In this document: positions 43,866-59,797 of the stretch, piece after piece
Layout of the letters: the number at the start of each line of letters is the position of its first letter
Position numbering within the stretch: the first letter of the stretch is position 1
Assembly (NCBI RefSeq): GCF_963662735.1
Contig: NZ_OY759744.1
Span: forward strand, 1,344,153-1,408,152
DNA from: an uncultured Methanoregula sp.
Lineage (GTDB): Archaea; Halobacteriota; Methanomicrobia; Methanomicrobiales; Methanospirillaceae
Direction: 5' to 3'
DNA: 64,000 nucleotides
Notes under the pieces: model-generated
What the model saw: the letters and a program-made list of their open reading frames with translations, nothing else
Databases searched by the model: none
Told to the model about the DNA's origin: nothing
Translations under genes and position numbers: made by a program

Positions 43866-44903
43866 ATGATTATGCAGACTAAAAACGGTCGATACTGGTG
43901 TATTCTTCTTATCGGATCCCTTTTTTTAATAGGGGCCGTCCAGGGAGCAATTAACACTATTAGTGCCGGTAATACCGTGTTTATTGGTGAACAGGGGCTT
44001 AACATCGCTCCTGCAATGGGCTCCGATACCAAAATCGGATGGTGGGCTTCGGGGGCAGATATCCGCGGGTCCGCACCATCAAATTCCATTGATGTGGCTT
44101 CACGACTGAATTCCTTCGCGGTCAGCTCATCCGAATTCTCAGGATATCCTGGCAACTGGTACCGGCTCGACAGTTCGGGCAATGCCGATGGCACAGCATT
44201 CACGGTTGCAAATCCACAAATCGATCTACGGGTTGAAGATACAACGGTGAATATTGATGCAACCAACAAGTGGGTTCCGAGTGGCGACGAGATGCAGTTC
44301 GTGATAACTACCAATCTGGTATCGCTTACCCAGAGGGGTGGTGGAAATCCCATAACCCTGAAAGTCCAGTCTCCGAACGGGGGTACCTACTCATCTCTGG
44401 CAAATAATGCAGGAACACTGACTCCAATCACCAATTATCAAGTCACAACGAGTCCCCAATCAACAGGTTCAATCTGGGGCACTGCCAACCGTGACACCTA
44501 TGCTCCGGGAACCTATACTATCTGGGCTGAAAGCTATGCGAATTCCCAATCTTCTACTACGCCATTCTACACGAGTGGAAAAGTCAGTGTACTTGTCCAG
44601 GACCAGAATCCCCTGATCGGGAATAAGGGGTACGTGACAAATCCCACAACTGCGGTCACAACGAATCCTACAACCCGTACTACTACGGTCCTGCCAACAA
44701 CCACTCTTCGTACTATTGTAATCACCCCGGCAACAACGCCCCCTACTAGCTTACCAACTACTGTACCGACAACAGCTGTGACTTCCAATCCTGCAACCAC
44801 GGTTCCGGTCTCCCCCTCACCAACCAAAACACCCGGGTTCGAATCAGCCCTTGCCGGCATATCCCTTATTGCTGGCTTTATTGTTTATCATAAAAGAAAC
44901 TGA
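43866..44903 (+). CDS. DUF3821-type surface protein with PGF-CTERM anchor
   Basis: About 345 residues exported to the cell surface: signal peptide (to about residue 28, IGAVQGA), then a DUF3821-like domain opening INTISAGNTVFIGEQGLNI, common in Methanomicrobiales surface proteins. A Thr/Pro-rich, probably glycosylated linker covers about residues 255-320. A C-terminal sorting signal follows: TPGFESALAG, hydrophobic helix, KRN. That tail is the PGF-CTERM signal cleaved by archaeosortase and replaced by a lipid. Start 43866 or 43872. It lies directly downstream of the repeat array. Confidence 0.85.
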   Translation: MIMQTKNGRYWCILLIGSLFLIGAVQGAINTISAGNTVFIGEQGLNIAPAMGSDTKIGWWASGADIRGSAPSNSIDVASRLNSFAVSSSEFSGYPGNWYRLDSSGNADGTAFTVANPQIDLRVEDTTVNIDATNKWVPSGDEMQFVITTNLVSLTQRGGGNPITLKVQSPNGGTYSSLANNAGTLTPITNYQVTTSPQSTGSIWGTANRDTYAPGTYTIWAESYANSQSSTTPFYTSGKVSVLVQDQNPLIGNKGYVTNPTTAVTTNPTTRTTTVLPTTTLRTIVITPATTPPTSLPTTVPTTAVTSNPATTVPVSPSPTKTPGFESALAGISLIAGFIVYHKRN

Positions 44904-44953
44904 ACTCTGATTTATCCCCAATTTTTATCTTCCCTTATTACCCAATCCGGTGT

Positions 44954-45460
44954 ATGAACATAGTAACTACCATAATAAAATCCCGGCATAGTGTAAGGAA
45001 GTTCAAATCCGATCCCATCGATGACACAATGATCCAGGATGCTCTGGAATGCGCCCTGCAGGCCCCGACTGCAATGAACCTCCAGCCTTACTTGTTCGTT
45101 GTTGTGAAACAGAAAGAAACCCTTGCAAAGATCGCCGGACTTGCCGATCACGGAAAATTTATCGCGGATTCTGCAGCCTGCTTTGCGGTTTTTGGTGAAA
45201 AGAAAGAAACTTATTATCTTGAGGATTGTTGTGCGGCGACTGAGAATCTTATCCTGGCACTTCAGGCATATGGTGTGTGTTCCTGCTGGGTTGCGGGTGA
45301 CAAAAAATCCTATGCAGAGCCGGTGAGAGATCTTCTTGGAGTTCCCGGAAAATATACGCTGGTGTCCTTAGTTGCAGCTGGATATCCGGCAGAAGTTCCG
45401 CTTGCAAAGAAAAAACCCGTGAATACGATTGTATTCATGGAAAAATATGAAGAAAAATAA
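44954..45460 (+). CDS. nitroreductase-family flavoprotein
   Basis: FMN-dependent NAD(P)H (or F420H2-linked) oxidoreductase. The N-terminal FMN-binding SRHSVRKF near residue 10 and ALQAPTAMNLQPY near 33 are typical. The C-terminal LGVPGKYTLVSLVAAGYPAE completes the fold. Length 168 residues. The natural substrate is unknown, as for most members. Monocistronic, divergent context unclear. Confidence 0.88.
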   Translation: MNIVTTIIKSRHSVRKFKSDPIDDTMIQDALECALQAPTAMNLQPYLFVVVKQKETLAKIAGLADHGKFIADSAACFAVFGEKKETYYLEDCCAATENLILALQAYGVCSCWVAGDKKSYAEPVRDLLGVPGKYTLVSLVAAGYPAEVPLAKKKPVNTIVFMEKYEEK

Positions 45461-45617
45461 CATTTATAACCCTTTTTAACATGGTCCTGTGCAACCGCAT
45501 TCATCTGAATGATGAGGGCGTCGGACTCCTTTTGTTCTGCCTAAGCGGGATGAGCCCGACATTGTCGTAAAATCCTTCTCGCAATTATTAAGCCTGTGGC
45601 ACATCAGATCAGTGATC

Positions 45618-46904
45618 ATGAAAAAAGCGATTCTGCAGGTAGCATTGGATATCCTTGAGCTCAAAAGAGGTTTGCAGATCGCACAGGAATCTCTTGATGG
45701 AGGAGCAGACTGGATCGAAGTCGGAACTCCTCTTATAAAGAGCGAAGGTATGACGGCGATAAGGGCAATGAGGGATCAGTTTCCGGATTCGGTCATTGTT
45801 GCCGATATGAAGATTGCCGACACCGGAACCCTGGAAGTCGAGATGGCTGCAAAAGCGGGTGCAAACATTGTCTGTATCCTTGCAGATGCCGATGATTCCG
45901 TTATTGCCGAAGCGGTCCGGGCGTCCCGTCTCTATGGAACGCAGCTCATGGCTGACCTGATAAATGTCTCGGATCCAGTCTCCCGTGCATGCCAGCTGGA
46001 ATCGCTGGGCGTTGATATCATCTGTGCCCACGTGGGAATTGATCAGCAGATGATCGGGAAAAGTTCCATTGACCTTCTCACAACTCTTTCCGACCAGGTC
46101 CACATCACCCTCGCAGTGGCCGGAGGAATTGATGCGGCAACGGCAGGGCAGGCCGTGGCCTGTGGTGCGGACATCGTAATTGTCGGGGGATGGATTGCCC
46201 GATCTGCGGACGTTACGGGATCAACAGAACGGATCCGGACGGAGATGGACACCCCCTCCCTGGTACACAAGGAGAGACGTTCTCAGGATGAGGAAATTTA
46301 TGATCTCCTGATGCAGGTTTCCTCCCCAAACGTTACTGATGCAATGCACCGGAAAGGTGCCATGCAGGACCTCATCTCCATTTCCGGTAATGTCAGGATG
46401 GCTGGGAAAGCAGTAACAGTGCAGACCGTTGCTGGTGATTGGGCAAAACCTGTTGAAGCGATAGATATTGCACACAAGCATGATGTTATCGTTATAAACA
46501 ATGACGGGTGCATCCATGTGGCCCCCTGGGGGGAACTGGCTACCATGAGTTGCATAACTAAAGAAATTTCCGGTGTTGTTATCGATGGCGCTGTGCGCGA
46601 TGTGGATGATATACGGGCAATGAAATTCCCCCTCTTTGCAAAAGCTGTAGTACCCAACGCCGGGGAGCCTAAAGGATTCGGGGAGATCAACGCAGAGATC
46701 AGGTGCTGTGGGCAGCAGGTCTCTCCCGGTGACTGGATTATCGGTGATGAGAGTGGTGTTGTGGTAATTCCTGCGGGACGTGCCTATGAAATTGCACGGC
46801 GGGCTCTGGAAGTCCGGAAGAACGAGGAACGGATCCGGGAAGAGATCCGGCGGGGGAGCACATTGTCCACGATCTCGGAACTGATAAAATGGGAGAAAAG
46901 GTGA
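45618..46904 (+). CDS. fused 3-hexulose-6-phosphate synthase / RraA-like protein
   Basis: Two domains. Residues 1-210 form an orotidine-decarboxylase-type barrel (LQVALDILEL, and the catalytic VADMKIADTG near residue 68) matching hexulose-6-phosphate synthase, which in methanogens runs toward ribulose-5-phosphate plus formaldehyde to make pentoses. Residues about 230-420 match the RraA/demethylmenaquinone methyltransferase-like fold (GDWAKPVEAIDIAH, GVVIDGAVRDVDDI). The fusion is known in archaea; what the RraA part does there is not clear. ATG 45618 is chosen over GTG 45612. Length 428 residues. Confidence 0.9.
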   Translation: MKKAILQVALDILELKRGLQIAQESLDGGADWIEVGTPLIKSEGMTAIRAMRDQFPDSVIVADMKIADTGTLEVEMAAKAGANIVCILADADDSVIAEAVRASRLYGTQLMADLINVSDPVSRACQLESLGVDIICAHVGIDQQMIGKSSIDLLTTLSDQVHITLAVAGGIDAATAGQAVACGADIVIVGGWIARSADVTGSTERIRTEMDTPSLVHKERRSQDEEIYDLLMQVSSPNVTDAMHRKGAMQDLISISGNVRMAGKAVTVQTVAGDWAKPVEAIDIAHKHDVIVINNDGCIHVAPWGELATMSCITKEISGVVIDGAVRDVDDIRAMKFPLFAKAVVPNAGEPKGFGEINAEIRCCGQQVSPGDWIIGDESGVVVIPAGRAYEIARRALEVRKNEERIREEIRRGSTLSTISELIKWEKR

Positions 46905-46908
46905 AAAG

Positions 46909-47346
46909 TTATCCGTGGAAGGTGGATCGTTCCAGGAGGGACGCCCCGGAATGGCTGATCTTTTTTATTGCTTCCTCAACGTGATCCACCCTGAGGATAA
47001 GGACAGCCCCTTCTTTTCCTGAATAAGCATAGGAGTACTCGATGTTGATCCCGCTGTCCCCCAGGATCTTTGCAACTTCGTAGAGCCCGCCAGGCTGGTC
47101 TTTCATTTTTACGGCGATTACTTCCGTGAATGCTATGTTGAATCCCAGCGACTGGAGTTTATCGTGAGCTTTCTCCGGGTGATCAACAAGAGCCCTGACG
47201 ACTCCAAAACCATTTGCCTCAGCAATACTGAATGCCAGGATATTGATCTTCTCCTCTCCGAGAGCATGGGCAATAGCCGCAAGTCTTCCCGGGCGGTTTT
47301 CAGAGAAGATGGATATCTGCCTGATCACAAATTTCTGTGTGTCCAT
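46909..47346 (-). CDS. tandem ACT-domain protein
   Basis: A 145-residue protein made of two ACT domains (residues 7-70 and 75-140), each with the ligand-loop pattern ENRPGRLAAIAHAL and DQPGGLYEVAKIL. ACT domains bind amino acids and regulate enzymes. Its ATG directly follows the stop of the paaK-type gene, so it probably senses an aromatic or other amino acid to control the ligases upstream. Family members are commonly found next to phenylacetate-CoA ligase genes. Confidence 0.88.
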   Translation of the reverse strand: MDTQKFVIRQISIFSENRPGRLAAIAHALGEEKINILAFSIAEANGFGVVRALVDHPEKAHDKLQSLGFNIAFTEVIAVKMKDQPGGLYEVAKILGDSGINIEYSYAYSGKEGAVLILRVDHVEEAIKKISHSGASLLERSTFHG

Positions 47347-48648
47347 TTACATCGACCTCCTGTCTATGACTTTTTTCGATTTTCCTTCAAATCGAGGTAA
47401 GGAACCAGGTTCAACCAGTTCCACCTCAGCGTTCACGTTCAGTGCGTTCCTGAGCCGGTGCTCTACCATCCGTCGCACCTGCATGAGATCATTGATCTTG
47501 TCGCTGAACGATTCCTTGTTGAGTTCAACCCGTACCAGCATATCGTCAAGAGCACCTTTCCGTTCGACAATGATCTGGAAATGCTGTCCGACTTCAGGGA
47601 TGGTCATCAGGGTATATTCGATCTGCGATGGGAAGACATTGATTCCCCTGATGATCAGCATGTCGTCCACCCGTCCCTGAATGCGCTGGATTCTGGGATG
47701 TGTTCTCCCGCATGAACAGACCTCTTCTTCCATGGATGAGATGTCACCTATACGGTACCTGACCATGGGAAGTGCCTCTTTCTGGAGCATGGTGATGGTA
47801 ACCTCTCCTTTCTCCCCCGGTTCGAGGGGTTCTTCCGTCTTCGGATCAATGATTTCAACAAGTGCCATATCAGACCAGATGTGGAACCCCTGTTGCTCGG
47901 AGCATTCCGTGAACATTGGCCCGGAAAGTTCGCTTGTACCGTAAATATCAAAGGCTTTGATCCCCAGCCAGTCTTCTATCCGGGTACGCATACTCTCGGT
48001 CCATGGTTCGGCACCCAGGATCCCTGTCTTGAGGCAGGTGTCGTTTTTGATACTGACTCCCATCTTTTCTGCAACTTCGCCCATATGGAGAAGATATGAG
48101 GGAGTACAGGCAATAGCCGTGGCCTTCAGGTCCTGCATGAGTTCGATCTGCCGCTCAGTGTTGCCGACGCTGGTCGGTAAAACGGTCGCCCCGATTCGCT
48201 CAGCACCGTAATGAAGCCCGAGTCCCCCGGTAAACAGACCGTATCCATAACTCACCTGGATAACATCTCCCCTCCCGAGACCGATTGAGGTAAGGCCCCG
48301 GGCAAGTGAGGTTGTCCAGGTATCCAGATCGTTCTGGGTATATCCGACAACGGTTGGTTTACCCGTAGTTCCCGAGGAAACGTGGTATCTGACAAGTTCT
48401 TCCTGCGATGCAGTAAAGATCCTGTCCGGGTAATTGTCCCGCAGATCGCGTTTGAACATGAAGGGAAGTTTCCTTACATCTGAAATATCCCGGATGTCAT
48501 CGGGATGAACTTTCTGCTCCTTCATACGATCATGATAAAATGGTGAGAAACTATACAGCCGATATACAAGACTTTTCAGTAATTTATACTGCATCTTCTT
48601 GAGGTCTGCTTGGGGTATCTTCTCAATACGCGGATCCCAGTATGTCAT
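47347..48648 (-). CDS. paaK: phenylacetate-CoA ligase family protein (second copy)
   Basis: AMP-forming ligase of the PaaK family, 433 residues. The phosphate-binding loop SSGTTGKPTVVGYT is near residue 91 and the core motif DIYGTSELSGP near 237. A C-terminal lid domain is present. In archaea such enzymes may make aryl-CoA thioesters for reductive synthesis of aromatic amino acids. The F390 synthetase of methanogens belongs to the same family, so the adenylylated substrate is uncertain. Starts inside the stop of its paralogue (ATGA overlap). Confidence 0.88.
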   Translation of the reverse strand: MTYWDPRIEKIPQADLKKMQYKLLKSLVYRLYSFSPFYHDRMKEQKVHPDDIRDISDVRKLPFMFKRDLRDNYPDRIFTASQEELVRYHVSSGTTGKPTVVGYTQNDLDTWTTSLARGLTSIGLGRGDVIQVSYGYGLFTGGLGLHYGAERIGATVLPTSVGNTERQIELMQDLKATAIACTPSYLLHMGEVAEKMGVSIKNDTCLKTGILGAEPWTESMRTRIEDWLGIKAFDIYGTSELSGPMFTECSEQQGFHIWSDMALVEIIDPKTEEPLEPGEKGEVTITMLQKEALPMVRYRIGDISSMEEEVCSCGRTHPRIQRIQGRVDDMLIIRGINVFPSQIEYTLMTIPEVGQHFQIIVERKGALDDMLVRVELNKESFSDKINDLMQVRRMVEHRLRNALNVNAEVELVEPGSLPRFEGKSKKVIDRRSM

Positions 48649-49934
48649 TCTGCCCCTCTCCGGTCAATCACTCGTTTTGCTTTTCCTTCAAACCGGGGAA
48701 GTGATCCCGGTTCCACAAGAGTGACCGTTGTCCGTAACTCAAGGGTATCCCGGAGCTCTTTGACCACTTTTTTCTGCAGCCTGGCAAGATCTGCCAGCTC
48801 GCCGCTGAAAAATTCCCGGTTGATCTCCACTTCGACGGTCATCTCGTCCAGATGATTTATTCTGTCGATATATACCATAAATTGATTGCCTACTTCCGGA
48901 ATCCTGAGCAGGACATGCTCTATCTGGGACGGGAACACGTTTATTCCCCGGATGACCAGCATGTCATCACTCCTTCCGGTAATCCGTGCGATTTTTTTGC
49001 CTCTCCTGCACAGGCACCCGTCCTCCATCAGCATCGTTATATCCCCGGTCCGGTACCGCAACAGGGGCATCGCTTCTTTTGCAAGGGGGGTTACTACCAG
49101 TTCCCCTCGCTCTCCATCAGCGACCTGCTCCCCTGTCTTCGGGTCAATGATCTCGACCAGGTAACTGTCATGCCAGATATGGAGGCCATTTCGCTCAGCG
49201 CATTCAAATGCAACACCGGGACCGAACAATTCGCTTAAGCCGTAGGAATCATATGCGGTAATTCCGAGCCGGTTTTCCAGGGTTTTCCGGGTGCTTTCTG
49301 ACCACGACTCAGCCCCGAAAAGCCCGGTTTTCAGGCTGTCAAGCGATGTTCCCATCTCTTCAGCCACTTCTGACAGATGCATGGCATAGCTGGGTGTGCA
49401 ATGAATCGTTGTAACCCCAAAATCATTTATCATCTCGATCTGCCGCTTTGTATTGCCCGTTGCACTGGGAATAACCGTCATCCCGATTTTTTCTGCACCG
49501 TAATGGAAACCAAGACCACCGGTGAACATACCATAATTGACCATGTTCTGGAAGACATCTTCATCGGTTATGCCCACCATCGTCATATTCCGGGCTATCA
49601 GATCTGACCACGTATCAAGATCTTTTCTGGTATATCCCACAACGGTAGGTTTTCCTGTGGTCCCCGAAGTAGTATGAATCCGAACAACCTGTTTAAGGGG
49701 TACTGCAAAAAAACCAAACGGATATCCGTCCCTGAGGTCCTGTTTCCTGGTGAAAGGGATTTTCGTAATATCGTCCAAGGATTTTATTGAGGTTTTCTGG
49801 ATGCCTGCACTTTTAAACTGTTTACGGTAAAAATCAACATTCTGCGCCAGACTCATAGTCTTTTTCAACCGTTTGAGCTGGAGTGCGTGCAGGGCATCGG
49901 GCTTCAGGGTCTCAATCTTTTCATTCCAGTACAT
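48645..49934 (-). CDS. paaK: phenylacetate-CoA ligase family protein (first copy)
   Basis: Paralogue of the following gene with the same architecture: HTTSGTTGKPTVVGYT near residue 89, DSYGLSELFGP near 237, and a shared ending (GSLPRFEGKAKRVIDRR). Length 429 residues. The two copies are clearly duplicated but diverged, so they probably handle different acids or form a heteromer. Operon order is paaK-paaK-ACT. Divergent from cas1 with 225 bp between starts. Confidence 0.88.
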   Translation of the reverse strand: MYWNEKIETLKPDALHALQLKRLKKTMSLAQNVDFYRKQFKSAGIQKTSIKSLDDITKIPFTRKQDLRDGYPFGFFAVPLKQVVRIHTTSGTTGKPTVVGYTRKDLDTWSDLIARNMTMVGITDEDVFQNMVNYGMFTGGLGFHYGAEKIGMTVIPSATGNTKRQIEMINDFGVTTIHCTPSYAMHLSEVAEEMGTSLDSLKTGLFGAESWSESTRKTLENRLGITAYDSYGLSELFGPGVAFECAERNGLHIWHDSYLVEIIDPKTGEQVADGERGELVVTPLAKEAMPLLRYRTGDITMLMEDGCLCRRGKKIARITGRSDDMLVIRGINVFPSQIEHVLLRIPEVGNQFMVYIDRINHLDEMTVEVEINREFFSGELADLARLQKKVVKELRDTLELRTTVTLVEPGSLPRFEGKAKRVIDRRGAE

Positions 49935-50121
49935 CTGCCACCCTTGTTATGCTAATGCATGACAAGTGGATATATGGTGTTTTCAACGGTTTATATTCAC
50001 CGAAATGTCGATCTCATTTGAGAAATCACCGTCGGGATGGGGGAGGAATTCAATAAAATCGTTTAAACAACGATGCACCGGACCGCGCAAAACGATGAAT
50101 TAATCAATCGATATGAGATAG

Positions 50122-50134
50122 TAAATAGATAAAA
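50122..50134 (+). promoter_or_regulatory. TATA box of the stand-alone cas1
   Basis: TAAATAGATAAAA lies 25-38 nt before the GTG at 50160, consistent with a leaderless or nearly leaderless transcript and independent expression. Confidence 0.45.
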
Positions 50135-50159
50135 CGGATCTGTATTTTTGGGGTTAATA

Positions 50160-51089
50160 GTGACGAATTATTCATGGCTGCCAGTCACCGGTTTTGGGGC
50201 CCACATAAAATCCACCCAGAAGCAACTCATAGTGCAGAAAAAAAATACCACAGAAGTCTATCCTATTGACTCTTTCAAGCACCTCCTCATCGTTGGAGGA
50301 CATACGATCAATTCAACAACCGTCATGCAGCTCATTAAAAATGGTGCATACATCTCGTTTTTTGATACGGATGGTTCACCGGTGGGAACAATACAACCGT
50401 TCGGTGATGGAGGCATGGCTGAATTGCATGCACTCCAGCAGAGTGTTCCCCGCCACAGGTACGCTATCGCCGTTGCAGATGGGGCTCTCAGATCACGGCT
50501 GTTATCGATCACCCGGGCTCAGGAAGTACGCCAAACAACCCTGTTTTACGAAGGGGAACTGGAATTCTTAAAAAACGCCCAGGAAGAACTGGTTTATCTG
50601 ATCAAACTGGATGAAATACGACGTCTTCATCGCATGACCTCAGATATGTATTATGAGATAATGGCCCGGGACCTTCCCCCCGACTGGGGGTTCAGGAGGA
50701 GGACCGATAGACCTCATACCGATCCCATCAATGCTATGCTCTCATTTGGATATGCGATGCTCTATGGTACGTGTTCTGTCTCAGTTATTGGAGCGTTTCT
50801 TGATCCAGATACCGGGCTGTTACACGATGGGAAGGGAAGCCTGATACAGGATCTTATTGAACCGCTGAAAGCGGAAATGGTGGACCGGTTAGTATTTCAG
50901 ATTGCAAAAGATAGCCTGAAACCTGCAGATTTTGAATTGACTACGAATCGTTGTATTCTCTCAGAGAGCCTCATCAGGATGATGATTGATCTGTTTTATA
51001 CGACAATCAATGCTGAAAAGATCAACGTGCATGTATCTGGTTTCTGTAACTCAATGAAAAATAATTCTGAATTCAGAGTGCAGTACTGA
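50160..51089 (+). CDS. cas1: stand-alone Cas1 integrase
   Basis: Cas1-family integrase of 309 residues. The N-terminal beta domain covers about residues 1-85 and includes LLIVGGHTINSTTVMQLIKNG. The C-terminal helical domain holds the active site: Glu 166 in MYYEIMA, His 222 in DPDTGLLHDG, and Asp 231 with Glu 234 in IQDLIEPLKAEMVDRLVF. All key positions look intact, so it should be catalytic. GTG 50160 is chosen by its TATA box; TTG 50148 is an alternative. There is no CRISPR array, cas2, cas4 or effector gene in the window, and no transposon polymerase. Solo Cas1 lineages in methanogens have been described; their role is unknown. Confidence 0.92.
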   Translation: MTNYSWLPVTGFGAHIKSTQKQLIVQKKNTTEVYPIDSFKHLLIVGGHTINSTTVMQLIKNGAYISFFDTDGSPVGTIQPFGDGGMAELHALQQSVPRHRYAIAVADGALRSRLLSITRAQEVRQTTLFYEGELEFLKNAQEELVYLIKLDEIRRLHRMTSDMYYEIMARDLPPDWGFRRRTDRPHTDPINAMLSFGYAMLYGTCSVSVIGAFLDPDTGLLHDGKGSLIQDLIEPLKAEMVDRLVFQIAKDSLKPADFELTTNRCILSESLIRMMIDLFYTTINAEKINVHVSGFCNSMKNNSEFRVQY

Positions 51090-51366
51090 CTCTTCCGTCA
51101 CCTTTGATGATGGAGAAATCATCGAAATTTTCCAGGGGAATTTCCACGAGATGGATATCCCGGATGATTGCCCGGGGACACCCGTATACCATTGAGACAA
51201 ATTTTTCAAGAATCATTGCTTCTCCTGAAGCATAGATGTGGACTCTCCCATCCGAGAGGTTCATGACGGTTCCCGTCACGTTCAAATCTGTTGCAATTCT
51301 TCGGATACATGCTCGGAATCCGACTTTCTGGACTCTTCCGGTAATGAATATCTCAATGGTTTTCAC
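51073..51366 (-). CDS. acyP: acylphosphatase
   Basis: Small hydrolase of acyl phosphates (carbamoyl and acetyl phosphate). The catalytic Arg 18 in GRVQKVGFRACIRR and Asn 36 in VMNLSDGRV are both present. Length 97 residues. Its last 17 bp overlap the 3' end of cas1 in convergent orientation, and it follows the 1185-residue gene by 2 bp on the same strand, suggesting co-transcription with it. Confidence 0.93.
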   Translation of the reverse strand: MKTIEIFITGRVQKVGFRACIRRIATDLNVTGTVMNLSDGRVHIYASGEAMILEKFVSMVYGCPRAIIRDIHLVEIPLENFDDFSIIKGDGRVSTAL

Positions 51367-51368
51367 CC

Positions 51369-54300
51369 TTACATCCCCTGCATGATTTTTATCGCCAGTC
51401 CCAGCTCGTCAAACACATCGTCCCGTACAGATGCCTGTCGGATGTTTGTTGCAGAATCTATTGCATAATCGAGGATTTCCTGTGCGGCCTCGTGGCTCCC
51501 TGAGGCATATATCTTCAGGGCTATATCGCACATCACGTATGAGCGACGGGAAAGCGGCCGGATGATCCGGGCTTCTTTTACTGCACACTGTATCATTCTC
51601 TGGGCAAGCCTCCCTTCTCCTGCTCTTTTGAAAAAAATGGCAAGGTCGCAGAAAAATAGTGCTTCTTTACCCCTGTCCGCAGCCGATCGGACGAGGTGTT
51701 CAAGGGATGTAATCTGGCTGGAATGGGAGTTCTCCCGTAACATTTTTTCCGAAAGTGCCTTGATTTTTATATACCGGGAATTCTCATCAATCGGCTCTTT
51801 CTGGCCGGTTTGCTGGAGATGATGGATACGGACTTCATCATTATCGATGGTATGTATTATCCTGTTCGCAAGATCGAGGAATATCTTATCCTTGCCCTTC
51901 TGGTACAGGACAAGGTAAATCTGGGCCATATTTTCCCGGATAATATCGGCGATATACTGGATGTTGATCTTTCCGGACAGGGTATCGGCTTTTGCCAGCA
52001 GGCTTAATGAAATTTCAATATTGTCGTTCTGGAGAGCCAGAGGAACCAGATCAATAATCGTAGAAGCCCTTTCGTACGGTGAAGAAATTTTTTCGACCGT
52101 TGCAGCCATTATTTTCAGGAGGTTATTGCATTGATCCTTATCGTGACTGAACATATTGTAGACCGCAACCAGGGAACTGATGTATTCTATTGGGTCAGTT
52201 ATTTTCTGGACCACATCCAGAGCTACCTGTATCCATTTACTCTCCGGTGCAACGGAATTCACTCGGACTATGGCGAGAACAACCTGACGCCGGACTTCCG
52301 AAGTTTTCTCAGGTTCGACCAATTCCAATAGCCGAATCCCCTGGTTTAAATATATTGATGCTGTTTTTGGATCGATGTCGGAATAGATTGTTGCCATGTC
52401 GGCAAGGATCATTATCTGCTGGTATTCTGCAGACAGATTCCTGATGTCGTTATGGATCTGGTTCATCAACTGGCGTGCACGCTCGATATCTCCCAGTTTT
52501 ATTGAGGCGTCCGCAAGATTACACAATCCGGAAAATCGTACATATGGATCGTGTATCCTTTGCAGGATCTGGAAGATCAGGTTGAGAACGACAGGATTAG
52601 TTTTTGAGATATCGTTCCTGAAAAGGTGATTTGCCATTATCTCGTACGGGTCCGTTGTTCCGCTATGGGGAATATTGTCCCGCATGCTGGAAATTATCCG
52701 GGCCATCATGGCATCCCGTTCATATGTATTGGCGATCTCAGATGCGTACAATGCCAGCATGACCGCATAATCGGGGTTGTCGTTTGACTGGGAATACGAT
52801 ATTATAATGTCGATGAAACAGGCAATTTTGAGGGATATCTGGTGGGATTTGCTGTTTTTTTTGATGATATCCATTCCCCGTCCAAATAGGTTAAGGACGG
52901 ATGTTATCTGGTTCCCATCAGTAGGATAGAGTGGATCCTGCAGGAGGATGCACCCTATTTTTACAAACCCTTCGGCGATTTTTTCCAGCAAATGTGTTTT
53001 TAGGGCGGGATCGTTCACATCTTCTGTGATCCTTGCTGCCTCTTCGAGTGCTCCTGCCGACTGCTGGTCGATGGCATATTTTATGATCCCATCGATAATA
53101 TTTGCCAGGGCATAGGTTGCCAGCTTCGGCTCAAGGAGAGAGCTGCTCCAGACTTTCATTCTTAGCAGGAGATCCAGATCTCCCTGCTGGGCTGCGAGAA
53201 TTGCTGCTTCATCAATAATGCTGCTCAAAGCAGCTGAACGGGTATCCTGCCCTTCAATCTCGCATGTCAATCCGACTGCTCTCTGGAGCAGGTCGCGGTT
53301 TCTTGCATGGACTCCAATCTTGGCAATCTTGATTACGATGAGAGAAATCGCTCTTTCTTTAATGGACTGGTCACTGATGGTATCGGTAAGATGGATGAGG
53401 ATATCTGGATTACAGTTATCAAGAAAACCACGATCGACTAGGATGGTGATGCTTTCAAGCAGTATATGATCCCGCTTTGGGTGAAGGGTAAGAAGATCAA
53501 TTACTGATGGTATGTGGGGAATTATCTCTTCGGAAGGAGCTTCTTTGCACAACTCAGTAATTGTTCGCGCGATTGCAGCATTTACGACTTTGAGATTGAC
53601 CTGTGCCAGAAGTGATGTGTTTATAAGGAGTATTCGATCATTCAGAATCCCTTTCTTAAGAAGATGTGTCAGTGTGTCTGCATAGAGAGGCGTGCTCTCC
53701 AGATTCTGGCTGATTTTTTCAAAAATTCCTAATGCAGAACTGAAATCATCAAACGTGAGCATTATCTGTGAAAATTGCAGATAAATACGGGATGATACCG
53801 CGGGTTCTAAATTTTCATCGATTAACGGAACGAGATCGACTAAAATATGCATGTTTTTGGTATTTTTTGCAACCGAGATTCCGGCACGGACCAGCTCTCT
53901 AACCGGGTATGGCTCCGATTTAAGCAGGTGCCGCTGTAAATCCAGGGCCGATGAGAGGAACCAGGGATCTCCCGACCGTTCAGCTTTCTTTAAAAGATCG
54001 AGAACAAGGATTTCTGTGACGGAAGGATTGTTTTTGCACAGTGTCTGGAGCGTTTCCAGTATCAGGTTTTTATCTTTAACCCGGTCAAGCATCTGTTCTG
54101 TGAGGGCACTGATTATCTCGAGGTACGCGTCGTGAGGTATTTTCTGGAAATTGGTAATGAAGAGCGGCACGTCTGCCATCTCTCTTCCGAAAATGGATCT
54201 GGATCCTTTCTCTATGATGAAAACAAGGCAATCATGTCTCCGGTTTTTCTGGTGGATCCCCGTTGCCTGGTTGATGCTATCGAAAAATGATGAACGGTTT

Positions 54301-54926
54301 TTCTCGAGAACGGCAATTGTCGCAAGAGCCTTTGCAAGCTCTGAATGCAGTACTGCACGTTTGGAGATATCGCCAATCTCTTCTATGAGTTCAAGGGAAG
54401 TATAGATTAATTCTTGATCGCGGGTTGTGATCGCCCACACAATAAGAAGTGGAATAATATCGATCATTATCTCTGATCGATATTTTCTGAAACTGATCTT
54501 TTGCAGTACGATCATTCCGTCCCGAATAAACCGGGGATCTGATCTGGATACGCCTTTATCGATAAGATCCCGCGCAATCCTGGCAAAAATTCGCGACTGA
54601 TTGCTTTTTTTCCCCATCTTTTCGGAAAGCGAAAAAATTGGATTGAACCAACGTTCATCTTTTGTACTGATGTAATGATTTATGATCTGCGAGAACAGGT
54701 CCTCTGTTTCTTCTTCAGATATTTCAGGAAGTTCGTTCAGCAATGTTGCATCATTGCGTTTTATTGAAATATCTATAACAATTCTGTTGATTTCCCGGAG
54801 GATATTTTTCTGGGATTTTCTTCCCGCATTTAAGGTAACGTCCGGTATAGCTGATTCTATGCTCATCCAGACATCCCTTGGCAGGGCCTGCTGGAGTTTT
54901 CCGAGAATCTCACTGGACTGAACCAT
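51369..54926 (-). CDS. very large all-helical repeat protein of unknown function
   Basis: An 1185-residue protein with no signal peptide, membrane segment, Walker motif or metal site that I can see. It is built almost wholly of paired amphipathic helices of 35-45 residues, often with the pattern hxxxA...hh...D/E-P near turns (for example KITDPIEYISSLVAVYN, EKISSPYERASTIIDL, QRIHDPYVRFSGLCNL). This suggests a TPR/HEAT-like solenoid. Such proteins act as scaffolds. The unit recurs near residues 780-1010 most clearly. It precedes acyP (2 bp) and converges on cas1. I do not recognise a family. Confidence 0.85.
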   Translation of the reverse strand: MVQSSEILGKLQQALPRDVWMSIESAIPDVTLNAGRKSQKNILREINRIVIDISIKRNDATLLNELPEISEEETEDLFSQIINHYISTKDERWFNPIFSLSEKMGKKSNQSRIFARIARDLIDKGVSRSDPRFIRDGMIVLQKISFRKYRSEIMIDIIPLLIVWAITTRDQELIYTSLELIEEIGDISKRAVLHSELAKALATIAVLEKNRSSFFDSINQATGIHQKNRRHDCLVFIIEKGSRSIFGREMADVPLFITNFQKIPHDAYLEIISALTEQMLDRVKDKNLILETLQTLCKNNPSVTEILVLDLLKKAERSGDPWFLSSALDLQRHLLKSEPYPVRELVRAGISVAKNTKNMHILVDLVPLIDENLEPAVSSRIYLQFSQIMLTFDDFSSALGIFEKISQNLESTPLYADTLTHLLKKGILNDRILLINTSLLAQVNLKVVNAAIARTITELCKEAPSEEIIPHIPSVIDLLTLHPKRDHILLESITILVDRGFLDNCNPDILIHLTDTISDQSIKERAISLIVIKIAKIGVHARNRDLLQRAVGLTCEIEGQDTRSAALSSIIDEAAILAAQQGDLDLLLRMKVWSSSLLEPKLATYALANIIDGIIKYAIDQQSAGALEEAARITEDVNDPALKTHLLEKIAEGFVKIGCILLQDPLYPTDGNQITSVLNLFGRGMDIIKKNSKSHQISLKIACFIDIIISYSQSNDNPDYAVMLALYASEIANTYERDAMMARIISSMRDNIPHSGTTDPYEIMANHLFRNDISKTNPVVLNLIFQILQRIHDPYVRFSGLCNLADASIKLGDIERARQLMNQIHNDIRNLSAEYQQIMILADMATIYSDIDPKTASIYLNQGIRLLELVEPEKTSEVRRQVVLAIVRVNSVAPESKWIQVALDVVQKITDPIEYISSLVAVYNMFSHDKDQCNNLLKIMAATVEKISSPYERASTIIDLVPLALQNDNIEISLSLLAKADTLSGKINIQYIADIIRENMAQIYLVLYQKGKDKIFLDLANRIIHTIDNDEVRIHHLQQTGQKEPIDENSRYIKIKALSEKMLRENSHSSQITSLEHLVRSAADRGKEALFFCDLAIFFKRAGEGRLAQRMIQCAVKEARIIRPLSRRSYVMCDIALKIYASGSHEAAQEILDYAIDSATNIRQASVRDDVFDELGLAIKIMQGM

Positions 54927-55058
54927 ATTCTTTCACGAAGGACACTGATGAATGAGTACTGTGAATTAGATTAAATTATTAATAAATATTTTGATACCAA
55001 TCAGGCTCAAATTTATTTATTTTTTGCATACTGGGCAATATTTAGCGATTTTCACGAA

Positions 55059-55079
55059 ATATCGCAGTATTGGCGATAT
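55059..55079. repeat. inverted repeat ATATCGC/GCGATAT
   Basis: Seven-base arms with a 7-base spacer in the 257-bp gap between glmM and the 1185-residue gene. Possibly an operator; otherwise the gap holds only AT-rich DNA and the TATA region of the large gene (near 54982-54998). Confidence 0.45.
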
Positions 55080-55183
55080 CACACCTGGGTATCGTTCGAA
55101 AACCGGTTAATCTGAATTATCCTAAAATAAAGGAACCCGTCTATCCAGTTGCATAAGATAAACTAAACCAGATAATTTTTAGT

Positions 55184-56545
55184 TCAACTATATGTCAGGA
55201 TTTTTTGTTTGATCTCTTTATGGAAATTCTGACATGTGTCAGGATCATCTGCGTCAACAATGATCCGGATTATCGGCTCAGTTCCTGACGCTCTCACGAG
55301 TATCCAGGCATTCTGCCTGATGATCTTAATCCCGTCAGTCTGATCGATTTTTTCATGAGTATATGCGGATTTAATTGCGTCCATAATCTCATCTCCTTTT
55401 GGGGTTCTGATCTTATCTTTGAGGACATATCTTCTAGGCAATTGACTGATGAGTTCTGAAACCTTTTTACCCGTTGAAGAGAGGATGGACACCATCATTG
55501 CTGCTGTCATACCCCCATCCCGACAAAACTGATGTTCGGGGAAGATCAGGCCACCATTTCCTTCACCCCCGAATATCACATTCACACCTTCATTCAGTAG
55601 TGAACGCATCGTACGGGCGACATAGATACTGCCAACAGGAGTGTATGTTACCGTTCCACCTTCCATGGTTATTACTTTCTCAACAACCTGGCCGGTACTG
55701 ACCGGAGTCACAACCGTTCCTTTTTTCTTATGGCAGATATACTGGGCAATAAGTGCAAACTGCTGATCTTCCTCAACGAATTTTCCTGTTTCATCAACGA
55801 ATACAGCGCGATCTGCATCCCCATCGTGGGCAACTCCGAATGCTGCTCCGCTGCTGATGACAAGTTCTGATAATGGACGGAGTCCTTCTATTGAAGGTTC
55901 GGGAAGCCGGCCTGGAAATGTTCCATCCATCTTTCCATTTATCGTTAAAACACAGCATCCCATTGCTGTGAGAATAACCGGGGTTGTAAGACAGGCAGGC
56001 CCGGATCCGGGATCTGCAACAACGGTAATTCCTTTTCCCGGACTGCCAGGAAAATGTCCTGAAATCGATGAACAATATTCCTGAATGAGATGGGGAGCAA
56101 TTGATTCGCTGCCTGCTTCTTTCCATGTCCCGAGAGGAAAAGAATTGCTGAAGATCAATGTTTCAAGTTTGATGGTTTCTTCATCCCCCATCTCGGTTCC
56201 ATCCGGCTCGATAATCTTGACACCGTTATATTCGGGGGGATTGTGAGAGGCCGTTATCATTACCCCTCCCTCGAAGTGTTCCCGAACAATATATTGGAGT
56301 GCAGGTGTAGGGAGAATTCCGCAGTCGGTTACGTTACATCCTGCTGCAAGGAGACCGGCTTTTACAGCCTTAATAAGGGATTCGCCGGAGGTTCGTGTAT
56401 CCCGGCCAACAGCAATTTGTCCGCTTCTCATGGATCCGAGAGACTGGCCGACCTTGATCATAAGTTCCGGTGTAATATCCTTACCAGTAACACCTCTCAC
56501 ACCGTTTGTACCGAACATTTGTTTTTTCATTTTTACTACGGTCAT
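55184..56545 (-). CDS. glmM: phosphoglucosamine mutase / phosphomannomutase family protein
   Basis: Alpha-D-phosphohexomutase that moves phosphate between C6 and C1 of a hexose(amine), feeding UDP-GlcNAc or GDP-mannose synthesis. The phosphoserine loop TASHNPPEYNG is near residue 100, the metal loop DGDADRAVFV near 240, and the phosphate-binding RASGTEPIIRI near 425. A GGGGAG site 6 nt before 56545 supports that ATG over the one at 56530. Length 453 residues. Last of a DUF5806-mobB-glmM operon. Confidence 0.92.
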   Translation of the reverse strand: MTVVKMKKQMFGTNGVRGVTGKDITPELMIKVGQSLGSMRSGQIAVGRDTRTSGESLIKAVKAGLLAAGCNVTDCGILPTPALQYIVREHFEGGVMITASHNPPEYNGVKIIEPDGTEMGDEETIKLETLIFSNSFPLGTWKEAGSESIAPHLIQEYCSSISGHFPGSPGKGITVVADPGSGPACLTTPVILTAMGCCVLTINGKMDGTFPGRLPEPSIEGLRPLSELVISSGAAFGVAHDGDADRAVFVDETGKFVEEDQQFALIAQYICHKKKGTVVTPVSTGQVVEKVITMEGGTVTYTPVGSIYVARTMRSLLNEGVNVIFGGEGNGGLIFPEHQFCRDGGMTAAMMVSILSSTGKKVSELISQLPRRYVLKDKIRTPKGDEIMDAIKSAYTHEKIDQTDGIKIIRQNAWILVRASGTEPIIRIIVDADDPDTCQNFHKEIKQKILTYS

Positions 56546-56547
56546 GG

Positions 56548-56982
56548 TTAACTCCCCTTTAGGGTTTTATCTAAAAACGTTTCAAAAAGATCAAGATTCA
56601 ATATGACCTGATCAATAGAGGGATTGTTCAGAGCGCATTTCTCGATCTCAAGACTACCGATCACGATTTTTGGGAAAGAGTACTGTTTGAAGCCTTCAAT
56701 TACTACAAAATCCATTTCCAGCCCTGCAAGCAGTTTTAATGCTTTATCCAGCTCGTTGTTCCGTATAACAACTACTGACTTTTGTGCGTCAATACCTACA
56801 GTAATGGTTGCACCGGCCTCAAAAAAAATGGTCGTATCCTTGCCGTCTTCGAGCTTATAATCATGATCTCCCAGATGTTTTATAACAGAAACGCTACCGA
56901 TTTTTTTTAATTCGGGAATCAGATTTTTGATAAATGTAGTTTTCCCGGAATTCGAACGGCCAACAACATGGATAATTTTCAT
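56548..56982 (-). CDS. mobB: molybdopterin-guanine dinucleotide biosynthesis protein MobB
   Basis: GTP-binding accessory protein for bis-MGD cofactor synthesis, needed for formylmethanofuran and formate dehydrogenases. The P-loop reads VVGRSNSGKTTFIKNL at the N-terminus. The EGFKQYSFPKIVI segment near residue 98 is typical. Length 144 residues. Starts inside the stop of the DUF5806 gene (4-bp overlap). Confidence 0.92.
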   Translation of the reverse strand: MKIIHVVGRSNSGKTTFIKNLIPELKKIGSVSVIKHLGDHDYKLEDGKDTTIFFEAGATITVGIDAQKSVVVIRNNELDKALKLLAGLEMDFVVIEGFKQYSFPKIVIGSLEIEKCALNNPSIDQVILNLDLFETFLDKTLKGS

Positions 56983-57734
56983 GATGGAAGTATCCCCTCA
57001 CCATTTTTTTTATCAGGGTGATTGTCCTGTTGATTTGCGTCTAATGTATTATTATGGTCTTTTACATACTCTGAATGGGTTTGATTAGTAGACTCCTCTT
57101 TGTCAGACAATTGCGAAGAATCATTTTTCTTTTGGATGATATCTGGGCTATCTATGCCGGTTGAATCAGATATTTGTACATCTGGCTGAGTGATATCCGC
57201 TATATTTGCCGGCATGGGGATGTCATTTTCTTCTCCCCGTGTCTTGAGTATGGTTTTTGCAGCTTCTCCCACACTTCTCATTACTGTGGTAATGCGATCC
57301 TCGATATCGATCTCTTCATCGATATCCAGTGTCGTTCCTTCTACTTCCAGGAGAAATCGTGCAACTTCGCTGGCTTCAAAAAGTAGATCATCGAGTTCAT
57401 CTGTGGTGAAAAAGCCGCACATAGCACCATAAAAAAAAGTTGCGCTTGCCTTTCTCACTTTTTTCTTGAATGAGTTGCGTGCCTGGTTTACTGCCTGGGG
57501 GGTATAAGTATCCTCCATGAAGGGGACGAGTTCGGGAAGATGCTTCCCGATGAAGGTCATCTCTGCTCCTCCGGATGTACGAAAATCGGTGCAGAGTCGG
57601 GCCAGAGCCCATTCCCTTGCTGTGATGTAGGTGCGCTTCCGTAAAAAGTGATTCACCTTTCGGTAAGTGGCTCCATCGACCTTCTTGAATTTTTTATATT
57701 TGTTGATCTCCTGCTGGATATCTCCCTCGTCCAT
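56979..57734 (-). CDS. DUF5806-family protein with acidic tail
   Basis: The N-terminal 165 residues match DUF5806, a family found in methanogens and haloarchaea with strongly conserved YRKVNHFLRKRTYITAREWA and TDTYTPQAVNQARNSF-type stretches (here EDTYTPQAVNQARN). The domain is helical and has no known function. The C-terminal 85 residues are Asp/Asn/Ser/Gln-rich and probably disordered. ATG 57734 is chosen from the family start; the longer frame to 57812 covers the promoter. First gene of an operon with mobB and glmM. Length 251 residues. Confidence 0.85.
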   Translation of the reverse strand: MDEGDIQQEINKYKKFKKVDGATYRKVNHFLRKRTYITAREWALARLCTDFRTSGGAEMTFIGKHLPELVPFMEDTYTPQAVNQARNSFKKKVRKASATFFYGAMCGFFTTDELDDLLFEASEVARFLLEVEGTTLDIDEEIDIEDRITTVMRSVGEAAKTILKTRGEENDIPMPANIADITQPDVQISDSTGIDSPDIIQKKNDSSQLSDKEESTNQTHSEYVKDHNNTLDANQQDNHPDKKNGEGILPS

Positions 57735-57983
57735 TGATGATACATCCTTATTTTTTGGTTTATTATCGTTTTTTGAATAATGGTAAAATAATCGACCTGT
57801 TTTGTATAGCATTATGGGGTTTATTCTTTATAAAAGATCTATGAATTCGGTATATTTTTCTATCGGCAAATTTTATTTTCCCGAGTGCGAAGATTCCATT
57901 CGCCAATTCTCTTCTCTCTGAAAGGCGATTCACAAAAAAGTGCTTTTGATCTGTGGGGAATTTGTTTCGAGTATACTTTATAT

Positions 57984-58331
57984 TTATTTGTTATCATGGG
58001 ATTGTTCTCCCATAATATCCCTGATGTAATATTTCATTTTGGATTTGTTGGGAGGTATTTCTTCTTTTTTATCCTGAACAAGGATTGTCTGATGAATATC
58101 TTTTTGTTCCTGATTGTTATTTGTAGTTGCATGGGCACCCGGTTTACCTGATCTGTTACTATTGACTTCAATAAAGGAATCAAGGGACTCTCTTGGTATT
58201 CTCCAGGCACGATAGGAAATTTTTATCCCCTGCAGTTTTCCTGAGCGAAGCCACAGGTGAACGGTTTTCTGATGAACCCCTAGTCTATCAGCAACCTCTT
58301 TAGGGGTCAGCATCTGGGTACTGTCTGCCAT
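57984..58331 (-). CDS. excisionase-type helix-turn-helix DNA-binding protein
   Basis: A 115-residue protein. Residues 6-57 form a MerR/excisionase-like winged HTH (LTPKEVADRLGVHQKTVHLWLRSGKL, ending IPRESLDSFI), the type encoded by many integrated elements. The C-terminal half is Gln/Asn/Lys-rich and lacks structure. Its promoter has a clear palindromic operator between TATA and ATG, suggesting self-repression. It stands near two recombinase genes in AT-rich DNA. Confidence 0.85.
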   Translation of the reverse strand: MADSTQMLTPKEVADRLGVHQKTVHLWLRSGKLQGIKISYRAWRIPRESLDSFIEVNSNRSGKPGAHATTNNNQEQKDIHQTILVQDKKEEIPPNKSKMKYYIRDIMGEQSHDNK

Positions 58332-58340
58332 AACGCAATA

Positions 58341-58363
58341 TTACCAATGATTCCCTTTGGTAA
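58341..58363. promoter_or_regulatory. operator palindrome TTACCAA-N9-TTGGTAA
   Basis: A perfect 7-bp inverted repeat in the promoter of the HTH gene, between its TATA element and its ATG, where a bound dimer would block transcription start. Single half-sites TTACCAA recur at 59843, 62752 and 63735 in the same island. Confidence 0.6.
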
Positions 58364-58373
58364 AAAATATAAC
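58363..58373 (-). promoter_or_regulatory. TATA box of the HTH gene
   Basis: Minus-strand GTTATATTTTT lies about 35-40 nt before the ATG, adjoining the operator palindrome. Confidence 0.5.
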
Positions 58374-59797
58374 TGCGAAGATATGTGAAAGGACAGATGA
58401 TTTCAATCCGACTTTTCGTTCTTATTTCAGGAAATTCTTCTGTTCTTGAGATTGCGGTTACCCGGTGTTAAGATTATACTTTCGCCAGGGATCGAATGGG
58501 TTATCTGGGCTTCGGGTATATGGTTTCCAAAATCATCTTTTGTATATAGCATCATATAGTTTATCGCCCATTTGCGATTAAAGATCTGATACGAAAAAAT
58601 CGATATTCTCGACGATAAAAGAATTTTGCCAAGCCTTTTTGTTGTGAATTTTATTGGTAAAATTGTTCGATTTAAATCCAGTTGGGAAAAAAAGGAGTTT
58701 CCGTCTCTAAAAAACAACGCTGGGACGCGGCAGAAATCATACCTCTATGGGGTAATCTATTCTGAACAACGTAGTGATTTAAGGAGCAGACTGCCTTATG
58801 AAGAAAAAATAACCTCGTCAGAACCGGACATTTAGATTGTTGAATTGACGTCCCGATTTGTCAGGAATTTCAATATCAGCCATCATTAGTCAAAATATTC
58901 TGAAAAAAATCTATCCATCGTTTGCTATGGTTTCAGCTGAATATGAACGGCCTGCGACGATTATCTCGATATCATTGAATTAACTGTGATTTGGCAATCT
59001 TCGCAAGGATATTACCTCAAAGAGGCCCCCCTTATTACTAACCATAAATTCTGCCAAGATGAGATTCCTAATATTTACCCTGGTGATCGACTGACTTATA
59101 GGTTAGTTTTGCGATCGAATCGAATGAGTAACGAATACCCCTAATTTCGTCGGGATTACCCTTACTAGGTTCTATCTGCTATCTCTCCAGGAGAACATAT
59201 AGTCTGAAAACGATTCAGATAACCCTCTGGATCCCTATTATTTCGGTTTGACAGTCTCGTATTCAGCTTGAATGTCCCCCTCGCCCCGCGAACTCGTGGC
59301 AATGTCCTGTGAAACGATTGTCTTATCTTTATGTCCTCTTCATGATGTTGCTTAAAGAAAATTCACTTAATGATTCAGAAAACATTCAATTCTTTTTCAT
59401 TCATTCCGGTCAAAATTGACATTGAATGGATAAGTGTGTATAAACAGAAGGGAAGCGTTTTGCTGTTTCTTCTGCTTGAAAAGCACTTCGTAAAAATAGT
59501 CAAGTGGGGAATGTCCCTCGTGAAACGGAAGAAATGGAAACTCTCTCAAAAGTAAGAAAAAATCGATGAGATTACCTTTAGATTTTTTTTCAATTTGCAA
59601 ATATTTCCAATAGCGCCTATCTGAAATGTTGCCAGCAGAACCTAAGATTTCACCAGCTGCGGGGTTTTAATGCAATCTATTGGGTTAATACAGTATCTAC
59701 GACGGAACTTGTTCCAGACCCTCATATTAGGCACTGGTTGGATGTTAATCCCTTTTTGTGTGCGTGATACCGACACAAGGAAAAGAACCCCCATTTT
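58374..59797. other. 1.4-kb AT-rich stretch without a convincing gene
   Basis: Short frames exist but none has a good start with a ribosome-binding site or a recognisable domain. The best is a 96-codon minus-strand frame at 58427-58717, whose last 45 residues have protein-like composition; it could be a decayed gene. A 61-codon plus-strand frame at 59370-59555 is Lys/Phe-rich and doubtful. The region is probably eroded or regulatory DNA of an integrated element. Confidence 0.5.

What the first reader, a model, noticed from the sequence alone, without database searches (positions are those of the whole stretch)
50160..51089. Catalytically intact Cas1 with no CRISPR or cas partner
The protein keeps Glu 166, His 222 and Asp 231, has its own promoter, and sits between housekeeping genes. 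No repeat-spacer array, cas2, cas4, effector, casposon polymerase or terminal inverted repeats are visible within 10 kb either side. A working integrase without an adaptation partner implies another role, such as DNA repair, branched-DNA processing or integration elsewhere. The presence of ruvCAB in the same genome makes a junction-processing role worth testing.
Basis: partly seen in the sequence, partly recalled or inferred. Interest (0 to 1): 0.75.

Follow-up and report, generated by a model that had tools for sequence, protein, structure and literature searches.

The report
Order-wide Cas1 with dismantled active site
This gene is a stand-alone relative of the CRISPR integrase Cas1 that an entire order of methane-making archaea keeps even without CRISPR; its DNA-cutting site has decayed while the rest of the protein and a short DNA element in front of the gene are well conserved, so it probably does a non-cutting job that nobody has yet identified.

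Summary
The gene is real: a full-length Cas1 homologue with no CRISPR, cas2, cas4 or casposon parts nearby. "Catalytically intact" is wrong. His222 is kept in 57 of 107. "No CRISPR partner" holds only locally: the same contig has a type I-B cas operon with cas1-cas2-cas4 and an array of about 32 repeats. The gene belongs to Cas1-solo group 1 (Krupovic et al. 2014), already reported as Methanomicrobiales-only without a full active site, later called probably vestigial. New here: near-universal (157 of 159 genomes), single clade, purifying selection (median dN/dS 0.14), kept in 62 genomes where no other Cas1 and no Cas2 was found, and 15 invariant residues while the active-site columns drift. 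An 18-bp element lies upstream of 71 of 99 loci; in held-out genera 39 of 69, against 4 of 387 upstreams of other genes. So it is neither vestigial nor, very probably, a working integrase. Best reading: a non-catalytic Cas1-fold protein, probably DNA-binding. Its function is untested.

The parts
50160..51089 (+). Cas1-solo group 1 gene (309 aa, GTG start)
   Evidence: PF01867 181.6 bits; orthologues in 157 of 159 genomes of the order
50628..50630 (+). codon of His157, the column of the canonical catalytic Glu
   Evidence: canonical E 39 of 40; solo E 4 of 107
   Evidence: solo 107 of 107, canonical 5 of 40
50823..50825 (+). codon of His222, column of the catalytic His (E. coli H208)
   Evidence: canonical 40 of 40, solo 57 of 107
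50850..50852 (+). codon of Asp231 (E. coli D218 column)
   Evidence: 107 of 107 and 40 of 40
50859..50861 (+). codon of Glu234 (E. coli D221 column)
   Evidence: solo E 59, D 38, N 4, G 3, A 3 of 107
50090..50107 (+). conserved 18-bp upstream element AAACGATGAATTAATCAA, ending 52 bp before the GTG
   Evidence: 28.9 bits, next best in the window 14.7; above 14 bits upstream of 71 of 99 solo loci; held-out test 39 of 69
51073..51366 (-). acylphosphatase gene, convergent with the solo gene and overlapping it by 17 bp; conserved neighbour
   Evidence: PF00708; adjacent and convergent in 89 of 98 solo loci
48645..49934 (-). AMP-binding enzyme (PaaK-like by recall), divergent upstream neighbour
   Evidence: PF00501 and PF14535, synteny

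Best explanation
The gene is the Methanoregula member of Cas1-solo group 1: a Cas1 lineage present in or before the common ancestor of Methanomicrobiales and inherited vertically since then, nearly always in one copy. Whether it came from a CRISPR or a casposon-type ancestor is not resolved. Shown: it keeps the whole Cas1 fold, its active-site columns are no longer under tight constraint, a different set of residues is invariant, it is under purifying selection, it persists without CRISPR adaptation genes, and most members have a conserved upstream element. Inferred: it works without cutting or joining DNA, as a Cas1-like (probably dimeric) protein that binds DNA, either a specific site or a branched or end structure. 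It may regulate its own expression through the upstream element.
For: Fold: AlphaFold2 pLDDT 92.9, pTM 0.91; Foldseek best 4n06_A E 2.2e-20; VIA-align Z 32.7 over 308 residues, rmsd 2.6. Active-site decay: 39 of 40 canonical rows have all four residues, 1 of 107 solo rows (L133) does; 15 solo-invariant residues; the His222 state changes at least 9 times among 47 rows on the tree. Distribution: 157 of 159 genomes, all 33 genera; in 392 sampled genomes of the phylum the only matches at E <= 1e-30 outside the order are 3 near 1e-33, which group with the non-solo rows. One clade, SH-aLRT 100, quick tree. Selection: median dN/dS 0.14, maximum 0.30, 75 usable pairs of 79. CRISPR-independent: 72 of 72 Cas2 genomes and 85 of 87 genomes without Cas2 have it; six single-contig genomes with it alone have no Cas3 core over the cut-off. 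Upstream element: 71 of 99 loci against 13 in 3.35 million other positions, with a matrix built from these same loci; with a matrix from 30 Methanoregula-like loci, held-out loci 39 of 69, shuffled sequences 1.3%, upstreams of other genes 4 of 387. Prior report of the family and its missing residues: PMC4046053.
Against: No biochemistry exists here or in the passages read. Four of 107 solo rows have Glu in the catalytic column and one (L133) has all four residues, so catalysis cannot be excluded for that lineage. Asp231 is invariant and position 234 is acidic in 97 of 107, so some metal binding could remain. DNA binding and dimerisation are inferred from the fold only. The element is missing from 28 of 99 loci at 14 bits, including L182-L194 and L210, so it is not needed everywhere; its strict form is confined to one of 8 genera searched, and a loose form has 62 of 77 sites elsewhere in 24 genomes. 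The Cas3 test also fails to ring in G018, which has Cas2, so it does not see every CRISPR system.
Confidence: 0.7

Rival explanations
1. Active nuclease or integrase with a rebuilt active site that uses solo-specific residues (Glu166, Asp231, Asp242, His48, Glu133) instead of the canonical set.
For: Glu166, Asp231, Asp242, His48 and Glu133 are invariant in 107 of 107 rows. Krupovic et al. [quoted passage not shown]
Against: Glu166 is nine residues after the catalytic Glu column on one helix (150-169), which puts it on roughly the opposite face (helix geometry, inference). Its helix neighbours Glu152, Arg155, Asp162 and Arg170 fall on about the same face and look more like an interface. No coordinates were available to measure this.
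Confidence: 0.15
2. Helper or regulator of the host's CRISPR adaptation in trans, for example a decoy subunit of the canonical Cas1-Cas2 complex.
For: The same genome has a canonical cas1-cas2-cas4 set, and both proteins share the Cas1 family. The own CRISPR repeat scores 9.9 bits with the upstream matrix, which about 0.06% of shuffled repeats reach.
Against: Kept in 85 of 87 genomes without Cas2 and in 62 genomes with no other Cas1 and no Cas2 found. Of 30 arrays only the own one and one with a near-identical repeat score above 8 bits.
Confidence: 0.07
3. Vestigial gene, decaying after loss of function.
For: Catalytic residues lost. PMC9755687 writes that earlier work indicated such Cas1-solo genes are probably vestigial (passages read).
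Confidence: 0.03
4. Immobile casposon remnant, i.e. a casposase.
For: Stand-alone cas1 gene; casposases share the fold (6opm_A Z 30.9).
Against: No inverted repeats, no DNA polymerase among the neighbours scanned, catalytic residues missing, and the four rows of about 400 aa taken for casposases by length fall among the non-solo rows. Same conserved neighbour in 89 of 98 loci.
Confidence: 0.02

Closest known systems
Cas1-solo group 1 (Makarova et al. 2013 as cited in Krupovic et al. 2014, PMC4046053)
   Same: Methanomicrobiales only, stand-alone, no sign of horizontal transfer, no full set of active-site residues: all recovered here, with one exception in 107 rows for the last
   Different: Published as unlikely to be active, later as probably vestigial or as a possible ancestor of Cas1 (PMC9755687). 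Here it is shown to be near-universal, constrained, CRISPR-independent and mostly accompanied by a conserved upstream element
Canonical type I-B Cas1 of the same genome (C1:958715)
   Same: Same family; 26% identity over residues 11-255
   Different: Canonical gene has the full active site and lies in a cas operon with cas2 and cas4 next to an array; the solo gene has none of these
Casposase (Cas1-solo group 2; PDB 6opm)
   Same: Stand-alone Cas1-fold protein, Z 30.9
   Different: Integrase of a mobile element with PolB and terminal inverted repeats and all catalytic residues (PMC4046053); the solo gene stays in one place and lacks the active site

Membership tests
Cas1-solo group 1 | Cas1 homologue not next to CRISPR or cas genes | tested here: met
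   array and cas operon only about 430 kb away
Cas1-solo group 1 | Restricted to Methanomicrobiales | tested here: met
   157 of 159 in the order; in 392 sampled genomes of the phylum nothing outside it but 3 matches near 1e-33 that group with non-solo rows; other phyla not searched genome by genome
Cas1-solo group 1 | Incomplete active site | tested here: met
   window protein has His157 in place of Glu; 106 of 107 solo rows incomplete
Cas1-solo group 1 | Separate clade in the Cas1 tree, vertical inheritance | tested here: met
   47 rows one side of a branch, SH-aLRT 100, quick unrooted tree; conserved synteny
Cas1-solo group 1 | Direct identity with the published member sequences | not testable with these tools
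CRISPR adaptation Cas1 | Glu-His-Asp/Glu active site | tested here: not met
   His157 in the Glu column
CRISPR adaptation Cas1 | cas2 and array at the locus | tested here: not met
   own Cas2 match only at C1:959702; no array in the window
Casposase | PolB neighbour and terminal inverted repeats | tested here: not met
   nine neighbouring genes scanned
Casposase | All four catalytic residues | tested here: not met
Cas1 fold | Whole-length match to solved Cas1 structures | tested here: met

The most novel reading that the evidence does not exclude
An entire archaeal order has turned a Cas1-type integrase into a non-cutting, sequence-specific DNA-binding protein. It recognises an 18-bp element in front of its own gene, whose strict core occurs only once in this genome, and so controls itself, with some further chromosomal or structural DNA target as its real task.
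Probability: 0.2. Interest if true: 0.8.

Novelty: new member of a known kind. Interest (0 to 1): 0.5.

Why it matters
Cas1 is known as an integrase. An order-wide, selectively maintained Cas1 that has lost its catalytic site suggests that the fold can be taken over for a non-catalytic role, and argues against the 'vestigial' label. The upstream element gives a concrete first ligand to test. There is also a practical point: the window protein scores 143 bits against the NCBIfam cas1 equivalog (cut-off 71.7), and all 32 orthologues scanned match that model at E 1e-10 or better (their scores against the cut-off were not shown). Automatic annotation is therefore likely to call these proteins CRISPR endonucleases, and gene-presence surveys could credit the 62 of 159 genomes without another Cas1 or a Cas2 with an adaptation gene that they lack.

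Tried and rejected
Fossil CRISPR repeat: the type I-B repeat of the own genome scores 9.9 bits with the upstream matrix. Only about 0.06% of shuffled repeats reach that, so for this one repeat chance is unlikely, though about 2% over 30 tries. Of 30 arrays in 27 loci only that one and its near-identical relative L277 (8.4) exceed 8 bits, while the closely similar repeats of L275, L276 and L278 score -6.4 to 3.8. Rejected, but not beyond doubt. Conserved operon partner: the longest nearby upstream ORF is on the opposite strand in 73 of 96 loci; several of the 23 same-strand ones look like antisense reading frames (by eye); none pursued further. RuvCAB link: RuvC in 99 of 159 genomes; rejected. 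Large regulon of the upstream element: 77 sites of a loose pattern in 24 genomes against 23 for the reversed control, 15 of the 77 in front of the solo gene (counted by hand); the other 62 sites were not examined, so further targets are not excluded. General promoter element: only 4 of 387 upstreams of other genes carry it. RNA families in 44000-62000: none over the gathering score. Defence families: the 25 models shown of 32 for P0001 are all Cas1; none hit the two neighbours scanned. Dimer and DNA-complex prediction were not possible. Type III effectors and Cas2 families other than PF09827 were not searched in the CRISPR-poor genomes.

Rows dropped: one search examined 103 loci, five of which (L203, L204, L205, L208, L209) are canonical Cas1 loci, hence 89 of 98. 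One search printed 128 solo and 41 canonical rows that still held repeats of the same gene; one search removed them (107 and 40), and only those counts are used. The ranks first printed come from the unreduced set. One canonical row (L071) is a broken gene and is the exception in 39 of 40. The tree used 87 of 99 rows (twelve close or repeated rows left out) and is a quick tree with a long solo stem.

Full report
What is there. The ORF at 50160-51089 (+) encodes 309 aa from a GTG. It matches PF01867 over residues 9-279 at 181.6 bits, and its best solved relative by sequence is the Archaeoglobus Cas1 4n06 (E 2.1e-17). AlphaFold2 with an alignment of 70 sequences gives pLDDT 92.9 and pTM 0.91. 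The model aligns over its whole length with Cas1 structures (Foldseek 4n06_A E 2.2e-20; VIA-align Z 32.7, rmsd 2.6, 308 residues with 7mi4_A; casposase 6opm_A Z 30.9). The gene ends inside a convergent acylphosphatase gene (17-bp overlap) and lies 225 bp from a divergent AMP-binding enzyme gene.

The active site. The alignment of orthologues with canonical Cas1 proteins of the same and related genomes puts the canonical catalytic Glu in the column of His157, not Glu166. After removal of repeated rows there are 107 solo and 40 canonical rows. The Glu column is E in 39 of 40 canonical rows and 4 of 107 solo rows (H 64, S 18, F 7, E 4, others 14). The His222 column is H in 40 of 40 and 57 of 107. 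The column of E. coli D221 is E or D in 40 of 40 and 97 of 107. Asp231 (E. coli D218) is invariant in both. Only one solo row, L133, has all four. By entropy the Glu, His and D221 columns rank 6, 1 and 6 of 309 in canonical Cas1 and 179, 193 and 128 in the solo family, while Asp231 stays at rank 1. The E. coli residue numbers are those given in PMC4046053; their assignment to columns here is mine. Fifteen columns are invariant in the solo rows (W6, G11, G13, G46, H48, E133, R155, M163, Y164, E166, R170, L214, D231, D242, C265), several of them variable in canonical Cas1 (M163 rank 306, E133 rank 302, R170 rank 243, E166 rank 199).

CRISPR in the same genome. The window lies in a single 2.82-Mb contig with a second cas1 at C1:958715-959575. 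Around it are cas7, cas5, cas3, cas2 and cas4 by NCBIfam (the Cas7 match is to a type I-B model, the type I-B Cas5 model stays under its cut-off while the general Cas5 model passes; two further ORFs, of 575 and 237 aa, gave no match) and an array of 37-nt repeats, 31 copies and 32 by an exact-word count.

Distribution. A profile of 32 orthologues finds the solo protein in 157 of 159 genomes of the order that are at least 85% complete, in all 33 genera. The two misses are draft genomes of 91 and 96% completeness (G005, G094); two other draft genomes show two hits (G124, G040). In a sample of 392 genomes of the phylum, 86 match at E <= 1e-30; 83 are in the order, and the three others, near 1e-33, group with the non-solo rows. 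Cas2 (PF09827) is found in 72 of 159. All 72 also have the solo gene, as do 85 of 87 without Cas2. In 63 genomes the solo gene is the only PF01867 match, and 62 of these lack Cas2. Six single-contig genomes of this kind, and two others in 7 and 9 contigs, have no Cas3 core over the cut-off; the own genome does, but G018, which has Cas2, does not, so this test is not complete. Type III effectors and other Cas2 families were not searched. RuvC is present in 99 of 159, so it does not track the solo gene.

Descent. In a quick maximum-likelihood tree of 87 rows the 47 solo rows are one side of a branch with SH-aLRT 100 and a long stem (1.56 changes per column); four rows of about 400 aa, taken for casposases by length, fall among the other rows. 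The root is not inferred, and with such a stem the sister group is not reliable, so a CRISPR and a casposon-type ancestor are both open. The solo gene sits next to the same convergent acylphosphatase gene in 89 of 98 distinct loci with 3 kb of downstream sequence. The nine exceptions belong to two divergent groups, L182/L184-L186 and L190-L193/L210. Median dN/dS is 0.14 over 75 usable of 79 close pairs, maximum 0.30. This contradicts decay. On the tree the His222 state changes at least 9 times among 47 rows.

Upstream element. A listing of orthologous upstream regions showed a shared AAACGATGAATTAATC. The strict form AACGATGNNTTAATC occurs once in the own genome, in front of this gene, and in 12 of 25 genomes searched, all of one genus of the 8; 12 of the 13 sites are in front of the solo gene. 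A weight matrix built from the 99 solo upstream regions finds it in 71 of them above 14 bits, against 13 sites in 3.35 million other positions (73 against 157 at 8 bits). In the window the site 50090-50107 scores 28.9 bits, the next best 14.7. To avoid that circularity I trained on the 30 Methanoregula-like loci only: the matrix then finds it in 39 of 69 held-out loci at 8 bits, against 1.3% of shuffled upstream regions and 4 of 387 upstream regions of other genes in the same loci; I had seen upstream sequences of other genera before this test. In a second comparison the best own 14-mer is kept in 52 of 99 solo upstreams, against 7-33% for HPS_430, PaaK2, TPR1185, GlmM, MobB, g277 and nitroR. 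ACT_145, PaaK1, AcyP and GMPS_A reach 27-71%, which I put down to coding upstream sequence (GlmM and MobB also have that), and CobT342 had only three loci. The element is absent from 28 of 99 loci at 14 bits, including L182-L194 and L210. A looser pattern has 77 sites in 24 genomes, 15 of them in front of the solo gene, against 23 for the reversed control. It is an imperfect dyad (GAT...ATC). Whether it is an operator, a special promoter or a binding site of the protein itself is open.

What it most likely does. Shown: Cas1 fold, relaxed constraint on the active site, new invariant residues, purifying selection, independence of CRISPR adaptation genes, a conserved upstream element in most members. 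Inferred: a non-catalytic protein that still binds DNA as Cas1 does. The alternative of a rebuilt active site is less likely. Glu166 lies nine residues after the catalytic column on one helix (150-169), which is about half a turn out of phase, roughly in line with Glu152, Arg155, Asp162 and Arg170; this looks like an interface rather than a catalytic site (geometry argument, not measured).

What is known. Krupovic et al. [quoted passage not shown] A 2023 review repeats this (PMC9939771, passages). A 2022 paper writes that earlier work indicated such genes are probably vestigial, and speculates that inactive group 1 might be among recent ancestors of Cas1 (PMC9755687, passages). Makarova et al. 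2013, the first report, is not held and is known to me only through these citations. Searches for a functional study showed none in the listings seen, which are capped and cover open-licence papers only. No call looked in print for the upstream element itself.

Verdict. The question of what an order-wide, catalytically dismantled Cas1 does remains open, and is now better posed.

Noticed in passing
window 50090-50107 (+): Conserved 18-bp element upstream of the solo gene, of unknown function; its strict core occurs once in this genome. Duplicated in tandem in L171.
   Followed up: yes
window 50160-51089: NCBIfam TIGR00287 (cas1 equivalog, cut-off 71.7) scores 143 bits, and all 32 orthologues scanned match it, so the gene is likely to be auto-annotated as a CRISPR endonuclease; a possible source of false CRISPR calls in this order.
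   Followed up: partly
window 20687-21136 (+): RuvC gene in an archaeon; RuvC is patchy in Methanomicrobiales (99 of 159 genomes), which suggests gains or losses worth tracing.
   Followed up: partly
window 51369-54926 (-): 1185-aa protein with only sub-threshold TPR matches, near the solo gene in 63 of the 103 loci examined; function unknown.
   Followed up: no
window 59670-61815: A serine recombinase (PF00239) and a tyrosine integrase (PF00589) 394 bp apart, 8-10 kb from the solo gene; possible integrated element.
   Followed up: no
L133 8001-8909 and L144 8001-8909: Two related solo proteins carry Glu in the catalytic column, and L133 has all four active-site residues; a possible reversal or an unbroken ancestral state.
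   Followed up: partly
G027:C1:809917-810752 (L071): A canonical cas1 split over two adjacent reading frames, apparently broken.
   Followed up: no
L129: A contig filed as Geobacter sp. UBA4074 carries a Methanoregula-like solo cas1 with the usual neighbours; probably a contaminated genome bin.
   Followed up: no
L003 12691-12727 (own type I-B CRISPR repeat): The repeat scores 9.9 bits with the upstream-element matrix, more than nearly all shuffled repeats, but most other repeats of the order do not; unexplained resemblance.
   Followed up: partly
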